This document shows positions 33,381-36,696 of a stretch of DNA of 64,000 nt, in pieces. A program made the position numbers and the translations under genes. This DNA is from Mycobacterium florentinum (lineage in GTDB: Bacteria > Actinomycetota > Actinomycetes > Mycobacteriales > Mycobacteriaceae), in contig NZ_AP022576.1 in NCBI RefSeq assembly GCF_010730355.1, forward strand, positions 5,394,001-5,458,000, in the 5' to 3' direction. The notes beneath the pieces were generated by a model. It did no database searches, was not told the DNA's origin, and was given only the letters and a program-made list of their open reading frames with translations. Positions within the stretch are counted from its first letter, which is position 1, and each line of letters opens with the position of its first letter.

Positions 33381-33986
33381 ATGCAGGAAAAGCGCCGCAC
33401 GCAGGCCGAACGTGCCGCCGACACGCGTGACGCTCTGATTGCCGCCGCCCGCCCTTTGTTCGCATCGCCGGGCTTCGCCGAGGTTTCCCTGGAAACGATC
33501 GTGCACGACGCCGGGGTGACGCGCGGTGCCCTGTACCACCATTTCGCTGACAAAACGGAGCTGTTCGCCGCGGTATTCGAGAAGGTCGAGGGCGAAATGG
33601 CCGACCGAATGGGCGAGGCGATCGCCGCCGCGGGGGAGACCGACCCGGTCGAAATCATGCGCCTGGGCTCGGCCTTCTGGCTGGATGCCTGCGCCGATCC
33701 CGAGGTGCAACGCATTGTGCTGATGGACGCGCCCGGGGTGCTGGGGTGGGAACGCTGGAGCGAGATCGGGCAGCGCTACAACATCGGGCTGGTGCGGAGT
33801 CTGATCACCGCCGCGATCGAGTCCGGACGCATACCGCCGCAGCCGGTGGAGGCGACGGCGTTGACGATGCTGGGCGCACTCCGAGAAGCAACTCTCTTCA
33901 TCGCCCGCGCCGACGATCAGCGGCAAGCGCGCAAAGACGCCGGCGCGGTGATCAATCGACTCGTCGATTCCCTGCGGGCGTGTTAG
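33381..33986 (+). CDS. TetR-family regulator of the DinB-fold gene
   Basis: About 201 residues from ATG 33381 (MQEKRRTQAERAADTRDAL); in-frame alternatives are GTG 33372 and ATG 33360, the last being inside the operator. The helix-turn-helix is VSLETIVHDAGVTRGALYHHF, a very typical TetR form, and the C-terminal domain is of the TetR_C type with WLDACADPEVQRIVLMDAPG. A matching operator overlaps the region upstream, and two more sit before the DinB-fold gene, so it is probably a local repressor sensing the substrate of that enzyme. Its last 4 bp overlap the stop of the convergent gene. Confidence 0.85.
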   Translation: MQEKRRTQAERAADTRDALIAAARPLFASPGFAEVSLETIVHDAGVTRGALYHHFADKTELFAAVFEKVEGEMADRMGEAIAAAGETDPVEIMRLGSAFWLDACADPEVQRIVLMDAPGVLGWERWSEIGQRYNIGLVRSLITAAIESGRIPPQPVEATALTMLGALREATLFIARADDQRQARKDAGAVINRLVDSLRAC

Positions 33987-34621
33987 GCCAACGCAATTGG
34001 GTCCAAACCGAAATCGGTTCGTACGGCCTCGACAAAGTCACTGACAGCCGCATTCGAGGCCTGGTTCCAGTTATTCGACGGTGTGCCGGCCCCGGAAATG
34101 AGGGCCGCAAAAAGCGTGACGACCGCGGCGTACTGAGCTTTTCGCAGGATGTCGTTAGGCATTATCAACTTCATTTCCGACATAACGCTATTCAATTCAA
34201 CCATTTGAGGCGCCGCGCGGAGTGCCGCGCGGAGCGTGGCAGCTGCAATTTGCTCGACCATGGGAGGAGTCGGCTCCGCGGCGCGGGAGAGAAGCTCGAG
34301 CGCCGGGGAAGCTGTCGCCACGGCCGCGCCGCTTTTTTCCTGCTCGACGAGGTTCTTGACGTCTTGATTGGACGACACCAGTTCATCAAATTCCGCGGAT
34401 AATTCTTTGAACTTCGACGAACTAATCTCGCCCTGCACTATATCCAAGGTTTTCACGAAGCGAACCGATACATCGCGCAGTAATACGTCGTGCTGCCTTT
34501 TGGTTTCAAGGGTTTCCCCTCGATGAAATGCAGCTTTCGAGGACATGAATGTCGTTACGCCGCCAACACCGGCACCTAGCAACGTCGCAAGCGATGTGAG
34601 TACAGCCTGATCCATGTGCAT
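33983..34621 (-). CDS. Stand-alone copy of the neighbouring PPE C-terminal domain
   Basis: A 212-residue protein from ATG 34621 (ATG 34615 also possible). It has no PPE domain; instead the whole length aligns with the last 197 residues of the upstream PPE protein: LTS..ATLLG near the start, RGET, RFVK(T/S)LDI, then EQIAAATLRAA, MPNDILRKAQYAA, TLFAA and the end FGLDPIA. About half the residues are identical by eye. It begins with a Gly-rich hydrophobic segment (VLTSLATLLGAGVGGVTTFM) that could be membrane-inserted and is otherwise helical. It is 33 bp from the PPE stop on the same strand, so co-transcribed. The function is unknown; the DNA is visibly more AT-rich than its surroundings. Confidence 0.75.
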   Translation of the reverse strand: MHMDQAVLTSLATLLGAGVGGVTTFMSSKAAFHRGETLETKRQHDVLLRDVSVRFVKTLDIVQGEISSSKFKELSAEFDELVSSNQDVKNLVEQEKSGAAVATASPALELLSRAAEPTPPMVEQIAAATLRAALRAAPQMVELNSVMSEMKLIMPNDILRKAQYAAVVTLFAALISGAGTPSNNWNQASNAAVSDFVEAVRTDFGLDPIALA

Positions 34622-34653
34622 ATGTGAATCCTTGTCCCTCGAGAGTCCTAGGC

Positions 34654-36696
34654 TTACGCTATGGGGTCCAAACCGAAATTGCTACGCACCGCGTCGACAA
34701 AGTCAGCGACGGCCGCACTTGAGGCTTGGTTTCCGTTACTGGCGCCGGCCTCGGAAACATGGGCCGCGAAAAGTGTGACGATCGCGGCGTACTGGGCTTT
34801 TAGCAGGATATCGCGAGGCATTGTGAACTTCATTTCTGCCATGATGCCATGCAGTTCAGCCATTCGAGGTGCCGCCCGGAACGTGGCGGCCGCAATTTGG
34901 TCAAGTTCCGTTGCGTCCGAGAGGAGTGCGAGCGCCTGATCGGCTGTTGCCGGGGCCCCGCCTGCTTTTATCCGTTCGAAGAGAATTCCGGCGGCTTGAT
35001 TGGACGCGATTACTTCATTAAGTCCCGCGGATAATTCTAATGTCGGTACCGAATTAATCACGCCCTGTGCAATGTCCAGGCTTTTCACGAAGCGGAGCGA
35101 TGAATCGCGCATTAATGCCTCATGCTGTATTTTCGTTACAACAGTTTCGCCGCGATAAAAATAGGGTTTGGTGGAAGCAAATGCAGTAAGGCCGCCACCG
35201 CCGGTACCTAGTAGCGTCGCACTCGAAGAAGTGAGTACAACCGGGTCGGTGTGCACCAACGGGAGCCAGCTCAGCGGCCCCCCGAGCGCCAAATCCGGCG
35301 CAGCCCCCGCGGCCGGGGGCGCCCCGGCAGCCACCACCAACGGATCGCCAACGATCGCCGGTGGCGGCGCCCCGACGGCCGGTACGGCAACCCCGGGAAC
35401 AGCGAGCGGCGCAGCCAATCCCGGTACGCCGTGCGGCGGGGCCAACCCCGGTACAGCCTGCGGTACCGAGGCCGGCTGAGCCGCCGGAGCCTGGACTCCT
35501 GGAACCTGCTCGGCGGGCGCCGCCGTCGTCCCGGACGTCGTCCCCGACGTCGTCGTCCCGGACGTCGATGTCGACGAGGTTGTCGAAGCCGACGAGGTTG
35601 TCGACGTCGATGACGTTGTCGATGTGCCAGCCGTTGCCGCCGGCGCCGCCGCTGTCGGCGTCGCTGTCGTTGCCGGCGTGACTGCCGGCGCCGCCGGGGC
35701 GATGGAGCCGTTGATGACGGTGACGTTGGCGCCCTCAATCCCGCCGGTGAGGGTGCTGCCGGAGGGGAAGGTGACCGTGGAGCCCGCTGGGACATTGACA
35801 GTGCCGGATACGACGGTGAGGTTGCCGGTGGGGAAGCCGCGGGGGAGCACTTGGCCGGGAGCGAGGTAGAAGGGCTCTTGGAACTCGGGGTAGCTGAGGT
35901 AGGCGCCGTTGACTCCACCGGTGATGGGGTTGTCGCCTTGGAAAGGGGAGAAGATGGTGACACCCTGGCCGACGGTGACGGCGCCTTGGTTGACGCTGAC
36001 CGATGCGCCGTTGGGGCCGGCGGTGTAGGCGGAACCGGGGTCGATGGTGGTTGTGGGCTTTTCCTCGGGGGGTGGCTGCAGCGACTGCATCAGGGATTGG
36101 GTGCGCTGGGTGGCGGTCTTGCCGGCGTTTTGGGCCTGCGCGCGGGCCTGGTCGAGCTGCCCGTCGGACTTGGTGGTCTGTGGCGGCTCGTCGAATGATT
36201 CCAGGGTGCTGGCGGTTTCGGCCGCGGCGGCGTAGCCGTACATCGCGGTGGCGTCTTGAACCCACATCTCCATGTACTGGGCTTCGGTGGCCGCGATCGC
36301 CGCCGTGTTCTGCCCGAAAAAGTTGGTTGCGATCAACGCCAGCAACAGCGCCCGGTTGGTCGCGATCACCGGCGGGGGCACCGTCAGCGCAAACGCCGCC
36401 TCGTAGGCCGCCGCCGCCGCGTAGGCCTGAACGCCGGTCTGCACGGCCACAGCGCCGGTCGCTGACAGCCACCCCGCATAGGGTGTCGCCGCGGCCGCCA
36501 TCGCCATCGAAGCCGGGCCCAACCACACCTGGCCGGTCAGCCCCGCAATAACCGAGGAGTAGCCGACCGCGGTGTACTCCAGCTCGCCGGCCAGCGCGTG
36601 CCATCCCGCCGCGGCGGCCAGCATGGGACCCGCCCCCGGCCCGGCATACATGAGCCCAGAGTTGACCTCGGGCGGTAAAAGGGCAAAATCCGGCAT
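34654..36696 (-). CDS. PPE-family protein with a distinct C-terminal domain
   Basis: A 680-residue PPE protein, expected to be exported by a type VII (ESX) system. Order: the PPE domain ([20 protein letters not shown], with the WLG turn of GQVWLGPAS) to about residue 175; a polar helical linker ([20 protein letters not shown]); a beta-rich Gly/Thr section ([20 protein letters not shown]); a Ser/Thr-rich repeat ([10 protein letters not shown] and related); a VPG-rich repeat ([16 protein letters not shown]); and residues 484-680, a separate helical domain repeated in the gene just downstream. No PE gene is adjacent. That last domain is not one I recognise and its DNA is more AT-rich, hinting at a later addition. 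Confidence 0.85.

What the first reader, a model, noticed from the sequence alone, without database searches (positions are those of the whole stretch)
33983..35247. PPE C-terminal domain duplicated as an adjacent stand-alone gene
Residues 484-680 of the PPE protein and the whole 212-residue downstream product share the same blocks in order (RGET, RFVK.LDI, QIAAAT.RAA, MP.DIL.KAQYAA, TLFAA, FGLDPIA), about half identical by eye. DNA similarity is also visible between 33988-34070 and 34660-34740. The domain is not one I recognise, and its DNA is more AT-rich than the PPE part. A PPE-exported domain with a free paralogue could be an effector plus decoy or immunity-like partner, or an unfinished duplication.
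Basis: partly seen in the sequence, partly recalled or inferred. Interest (0 to 1): 0.8.

Follow-up and report, generated by a model that had tools for sequence, protein, structure and literature searches.

The report
PPE protein with membrane-anchored domain twin
A group of mycobacteria carries, side by side, two old versions of one unknown helical domain, one probably anchored in the cell membrane and one attached to a PPE protein (a class of exported proteins) with its anchor eroded, and selection appears to have kept both.

Summary
The 212-aa product and the last 200 residues of the 680-aa PPE protein are paralogues (58% identity over 211 aa, E 6e-64). The domain ("X") has no Pfam or NCBIfam family. 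Of 396 Mycobacterium genomes searched, 33 match: 9 carry the PPE-X + free-X pair in one conserved neighbourhood, 24 only a distant homologue, and none was seen with one half alone. Fused copies are monophyletic (100/100) and both copies are under purifying selection in the 8 genomes with intact genes: an old retained pair, not an unfinished duplication. The free copy has a transmembrane-like N-terminal segment; in the 16 fused copies compared it has lost hydrophobicity (Val19 to Gly 16/16), while several family-invariant residues are kept. A PPE-linker remnant lies in frame upstream of the free gene in 4 of 9 loci, strongest in one. I read it as an exported and a membrane-anchored version of one domain. 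Docking of PPE-X by free X at the inner membrane is the mechanism I favour (about 0.35), untested. No feature found supports effector/decoy or immunity.

The parts
34654..36696 (-). PPE-X gene, 680 aa
   Evidence: ORF; PF00823 E 6.9e-63 at residues 3-164
36205..36690 (-). PPE domain (residues 3-164), with PPE motif at residue 8 and WLG (WxG) at residue 58
35257..36204 (-). middle Gly/Val/Thr-rich region and Pro/Ala/Thr/Ser linker (residues 165-480), GC 0.71
   Evidence: sequence; GC; the 7 homologues found with residues 205-500 are all PPE proteins
34657..35256 (-). fused X domain (residues 481-680), GC 0.56
   Evidence: 58% identical to the free gene product; GC
35179..35241 (-). degraded former transmembrane-like segment of the fused X ([21 protein letters not shown])
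   Evidence: hydropathy and fixed differences
34622..34653 (-). 32-nt spacer between PPE-X stop and free-X start; the two genes are probably one transcript (inference)
33983..34621 (-). free X gene, 212 aa, GC 0.56
   Evidence: ORF; start ATGCAC in 9 of 9 loci
34547..34603 (-). transmembrane-like segment of the free X (residues 7-25); 0 K/R before and 4 K/R in the 20 residues after
   Evidence: AF2 helix 6-68 (low confidence at residues 1-33)

Best explanation
Shown: an old tandem pair encoding one mycobacterial domain (X, predicted helical) twice. The downstream copy is a free small protein with an N-terminal transmembrane-like segment; the upstream copy is the C-terminal part of a PPE protein and has lost that segment's hydrophobicity. 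The fused form arose once, lies in one conserved neighbourhood in 9 genomes, and selection keeps both halves in the 8 intact ones. Inferred: free X is an inner-membrane protein with its helical domain facing the cytoplasm, and the PPE domain carries the other X out through a type VII (ESX) secretion system; loss of the anchor made this possible. Committed mechanism (inferred, about 0.35): like many paralogous helical bundles, the two X domains bind each other, and free X docks or chaperones PPE-X at the inner face of the membrane before export. Likely history (about 0.6): free X, then fusion to a PPE gene, then partial 3' duplication releasing a free copy, then loss of the anchor in the fused copy.
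For: Homology. Pair in 9 of 9 carriers, none seen with only one half among 33 matching of 396 genomes (7 candidates scored per genome), shared flanking genes. Fused clade 100/100. dN/dS medians 0.22 free, 0.28 fused X, 0.23 PPE domain, 28 pairs of 8 genomes each. Maximum 19-residue hydropathy 1.35-1.74 in 32 free vs 0.78-1.19 in 16 fused; V19 to G 16/16, L11 to G or S 16/16. R49, F55, E149, P155, A162, R201 kept in 16/16 fused. 4-5 K/R after the segment, none before, 9 of 9. In-frame PPE-linker-like remnant before the free ATG in the 4 of 9 loci with long spacers: scores 97, 64, 57, 51 against shuffle maxima 58, 51, 57, 44. PPE motif and WxG in 9 of 9.
Against: No direct evidence of export, membrane insertion or X-X binding. 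The free segment's hydropathy (median 1.47) is only a little above the interior maximum (1.36), and AF2 gives residues 1-33 low confidence. The broken fused copy of G076, left out, scored 1.33, near the free range. No PE gene lies in the window (0 of 11 PE hits of the genome), so the usual secretion partner is unknown. Near-invariants L152 (8/16) and R34 (12/16) are relaxed in the fused copy. For the history: the remnant also fits a free X whose upstream flank was duplicated and then captured as PPE linker; for G244 2 of 200 shuffles reached the score, for G164 an out-of-frame reading scored 63 against 64 in frame; at DNA level the likeness is clear for G110 only. Contig 744946 holds a broken PPE-X (P0048, P0032) and no listed free-X cluster gives that contig.
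Confidence: 0.4

Rival explanations
1. Plain division of labour: free X keeps the ancestral inner-membrane role, and PPE-X carries the same domain to the cell surface for a separate role. The two proteins never meet; they are neighbours only because the duplication was in tandem.
For: Both copies under purifying selection; 24 of 33 matching genomes have a distant homologue and no PPE-X found; anchor loss fits export.
Against: Co-retention in 9 of 9 genomes and short spacers (13-32 nt) in 5 of 9 fit a partnership slightly better; not decisive, since one event at one site explains both.
Confidence: 0.38
2. Effector plus immunity or decoy: PPE-X is a toxic or host-directed effector and free X protects the producer or titrates it.
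For: Adjacent paralogue; one exported in principle, one probably at the producer's membrane.
Against: No toxin, enzyme or meaningful defence-family match. Immunity proteins are rarely paralogues of the toxin domain (recalled). Distant homologues occur without a PPE-X, 3 of the 7 surroundings read being a whiA and glycolysis-gene region.
Confidence: 0.07
3. Neutral leftover of a recent tandem duplication, not yet lost.
For: Both copies and several neighbours are broken in M. genavense (G076), so the pair can be lost.
Against: dN/dS medians 0.22-0.28, paralogue dS 0.35-0.95, fused clade 100/100 across species; 34 diagnostic columns mostly sort by kind.
Confidence: 0.04

Closest known systems
[quoted passage not shown] LipY is the usual example
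   Same: N-terminal PPE domain with PPE and WxG motifs followed by a domain foreign to the family. [quoted passage not shown] a PPE-lipase form of LipY is recalled
   Different: The C-terminal domain is an unnamed, predicted helical domain with a free, probably membrane-anchored paralogue next door; LipY's is a lipase. No SVP, PPW or MPTR motif in 9 of 9.
Distant X proteins of Mycobacterium (for example L044:8716-9357, beside a whiA-like gene)
   Same: Similar length and layout: N-terminal hydrophobic segment ending in GG, then conserved E-x-x-L-x-x-P and F-x-x-x-V-R blocks
   Different: 24-35% identity, no PPE fusion in the 13 of 24 whose frames I read; GC3 0.92 in L044, 0.64 in L040, 0.74 in L049. 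M. tuberculosis Rv1424c, annotated 'possible membrane protein' (PMC8157059, passages), is next to whiA by my recall; whether it belongs here was not tested.
PE-PPE heterodimer with EspG chaperone
   Same: A PPE substrate with a small partner candidate encoded beside it
   Different: Free X is a paralogue of the PPE's C-terminus, not a PE protein, lies downstream and has an anchor-like segment; no PE in the window.

Membership tests
PPE family (PF00823) | N-terminal PPE domain above Pfam cut-off | tested here: met
   E 6.9e-63, 212 bits vs cut-off 26
PPE family (PF00823) | Pro-Pro-Glu near the N-terminus and WxG motif | tested here: met
   9 of 9 loci
PPE family (PF00823) | Secreted by a type VII system as a PE-PPE heterodimer | not testable with these tools
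   no PE gene in the window (0 of 11 PE hits of the genome); export needs an experiment
PPE-SVP, PPE-PPW and PPE-MPTR subfamilies | G-x-x-S-V-P-x-x-W; GFxGT and PxxPxxW; NxGxGNxG repeats | tested here: not met
   none in 9 of 9; SVP and PPW motif definitions from PMC1660551 passages, MPTR motif recalled
Distant X family of Mycobacterium | Sequence homology over most of the length | tested here: met
   E 3.8e-17 to 7.4e-5 to the free X in 24 genomes, 23 of them over about query residues 7-208, one (G382) over 8-61 only; shared invariant columns
Distant X family of Mycobacterium | N-terminal transmembrane-like segment | tested here: met
   maximum hydropathy median 1.47 in free X vs 1.68 in 100 distant proteins (range 0.15-2.17)
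Toxin/immunity or anti-phage defence pair | Match to a known toxin, immunity or defence family | tested here: not met
Four-helix sensor/chemoreceptor ligand-binding domains | Same fold | tested here: inconclusive

The most novel reading that the evidence does not exclude
A PPE secretion substrate that travels with a dedicated membrane-anchored twin of its own C-terminal domain: free X captures PPE-X at the inner membrane by paralogous heterodimerisation and hands it to an ESX machine, a substrate-docking arrangement distinct from PE partners and EspG chaperones.
Probability: 0.25. Interest if true: 0.75.

Novelty: new variant of a known kind. Interest (0 to 1): 0.45.

Why it matters
What PPE C-terminal domains do is mostly unknown. 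Here the domain can be traced to a family of small mycobacterial proteins with an anchor-like segment, the erosion of that segment can be read residue by residue, and a retained unfused twin gives a natural internal control. That makes 'what does fusion to PPE do to a domain' testable in one gene pair.

Full report
Observation. The PPE gene (36696..34654, minus) and the gene behind it (34621..33983, minus) were confirmed. The 212-aa product matches PPE residues 481-680 with 58% identity, E 6e-64. Both copies have GC 0.56 while the rest of the PPE gene has 0.69-0.71, and the contrast holds in all 8 genomes with intact genes (GC3 of X 0.54-0.72, of the PPE domain 0.84-0.88). No Pfam or NCBIfam model hits X at E<=1. 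The genome search finds two copies.

Distribution. Of 396 Mycobacterium genomes, drawn evenly from a larger group, 33 match (7 candidates scored per genome). Nine have the pair: G000 (own), G110, G235, G164, G361, G244, G277, G143 and G076. M. ahvazicum is called a species of the M. simiae complex (title of PMC5841666, listing); that the others belong there is recalled. The other 24 have one distant homologue (24-35% identity); I read the frames of 13 of these and all 13 are free-standing. In M. genavense both copies and several neighbours are broken. On the PPE side the same esterase gene lies within 6 kb in 9 of 9 loci; on the other side the cutinase gene is found in 8 of 9 (not in the 18-kb stretch of G143). 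A relative with a 94% identical esterase, G031, has no X match and no PPE, TetR or MDMPI match at the same site. Among database proteins, P0002/P0046, P0009/P0045, P0020/P0050, P0021/P0047 and P0023/P0031 show equal contig lengths, which suggests further pairs but was not checked on DNA; P0032/P0048 (contig 744946), a broken PPE-X, has no listed free partner of that contig length, and P0049 has none either.

Family. In an alignment of near and distant members conserved columns run along the length (G20, G21, R34, R49, F55, E149, L152, P155, F196, R201). In 298 genomes of the order, 76 genera, 6 genomes match, all Mycobacterium. Of seven distant loci whose surroundings were listed, three (L041, L044, L046) lie between whiA-like and gap-like genes (recognised by eye). 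One (L049) lies next to genes with EspA/EspE and EspC domains, and in one (L040) two genes separate X from a PE gene; two cases are a lead only. The surroundings of L050 and L051 suggested nothing.

History. In a tree of 47 chosen sequences the fused copies form one clade (100/100) on a long stem; where it joins the free copies is not firmly resolved, and the nearest outgroup proteins, P0027 and P0041, are free. dN/dS medians are 0.22 (free), 0.28 (fused X) and 0.23 (PPE domain), 28 pairs of 8 genomes each; the two paralogues in one genome differ by dS 0.35-0.95. Thirty-four diagnostic columns mostly sort by kind, with P0046 the most mixed fused copy (8 free-type). This is an old, kept pair. 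In the four loci with long spacers (211-542 nt) the DNA just before the free start codon reads, in the frame of the free gene, like the end of the PPE linker (for example VPGLAAPNLALGEQPGWQPSTFTH in G110 against LPAPAAPNLALGGQPGWQPATLVH in P0047): scores 97, 64, 57 and 51 against 200 shuffles each, reached by 0, 0, 2 and 0 of them; in G164 another frame scored 63. At DNA level, against the PPE gene of the same genome, G110 scored 54 (shuffle maximum 30), G164 37 (35) and G244 32 (34; 2 of 100 reached it), both elsewhere in the spacer, and G076 26 (29; 24 of 100), so DNA support is clear for G110 only. I take it that the duplicated unit included PPE-linker sequence. The simplest order is fusion first and release of a free copy second, but capture of a duplicated upstream flank cannot be excluded.

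Anchor. Free X starts with six residues without K or R, then about 19 mostly apolar residues, then 4-5 K/R in 20 (9 of 9), which by the positive-inside rule (recalled) puts the domain in the cytoplasm. Hydropathy of this segment is 1.35-1.74 in 32 free and 0.78-1.19 in 16 fused copies; the broken G076 fused copy, left out there, gave 1.33. Of seven columns that differ strongly between the kinds, three lie in or at this segment (L11 to G or S, V19 to G, S28 to T). R49, F55, E149, P155, A162 and R201 are kept in 16 of 16 fused copies, while L152 (8/16) and R34 (12/16) are relaxed. So the domain was kept and the anchor was eroded, as expected for something that must leave the membrane. Against this, the free segment is only modestly hydrophobic (interior maximum 1.36) and the model is weak there (mean pLDDT 65.3 overall, under 50 at residues 1-33).

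Mechanism. The PPE part has the PF00823 domain, the PPE motif and WxG, so export by a type VII system is the standard expectation (PMC7028111, passages), though no PE gene is in the window and export is not shown. Before export both X domains would be in the cytoplasm, one at the membrane. Paralogous helical domains often dimerise (general knowledge), so docking of PPE-X by free X is the mechanism I commit to, at about 0.35, tied with separate roles. Immunity or decoy has no support.

Novelty. Variable and unique C-terminal domains of PE/PPE proteins are known (PMC7028111, passages); one with a retained, anchor-bearing twin is not named in the titles and abstract starts listed. I file it as a new variant of a known kind.

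Noticed in passing
window 33381-33986 and 33983-34621: A TetR-family regulator gene (PF00440, PF21351) ends tail to tail with the free X gene, overlapping by 4 bases; it was not found in 5 of the 8 related loci.
   Followed up: partly
L049:5617-8740: A distant free X homologue lies next to genes with EspA/EspE and EspC (type VII) domains.
   Followed up: partly
L040:8561-11873: A distant free X homologue is followed by an Mrr-type restriction endonuclease domain protein, a Cu/Zn superoxide dismutase gene and a PE gene.
   Followed up: partly
L039 (M. genavense): Several genes of the neighbourhood (plsB, plsC, WS/DGAT, PPE-X, free X, cutinase) match in pieces, consistent with genome decay.
   Followed up: no
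L071:11443-12135: At the syntenic site a close relative has a 230-aa ORF that looks like a GAF-ANTAR regulator (by eye, not searched).
   Followed up: no
L090 (own genome 5482287-5483267, +): A PPE paralogue 24 kb beyond the window continues into a very long Val/Gly/Thr-rich repeat that looks like a beta-solenoid (by eye; at least 827 aa read).
   Followed up: no
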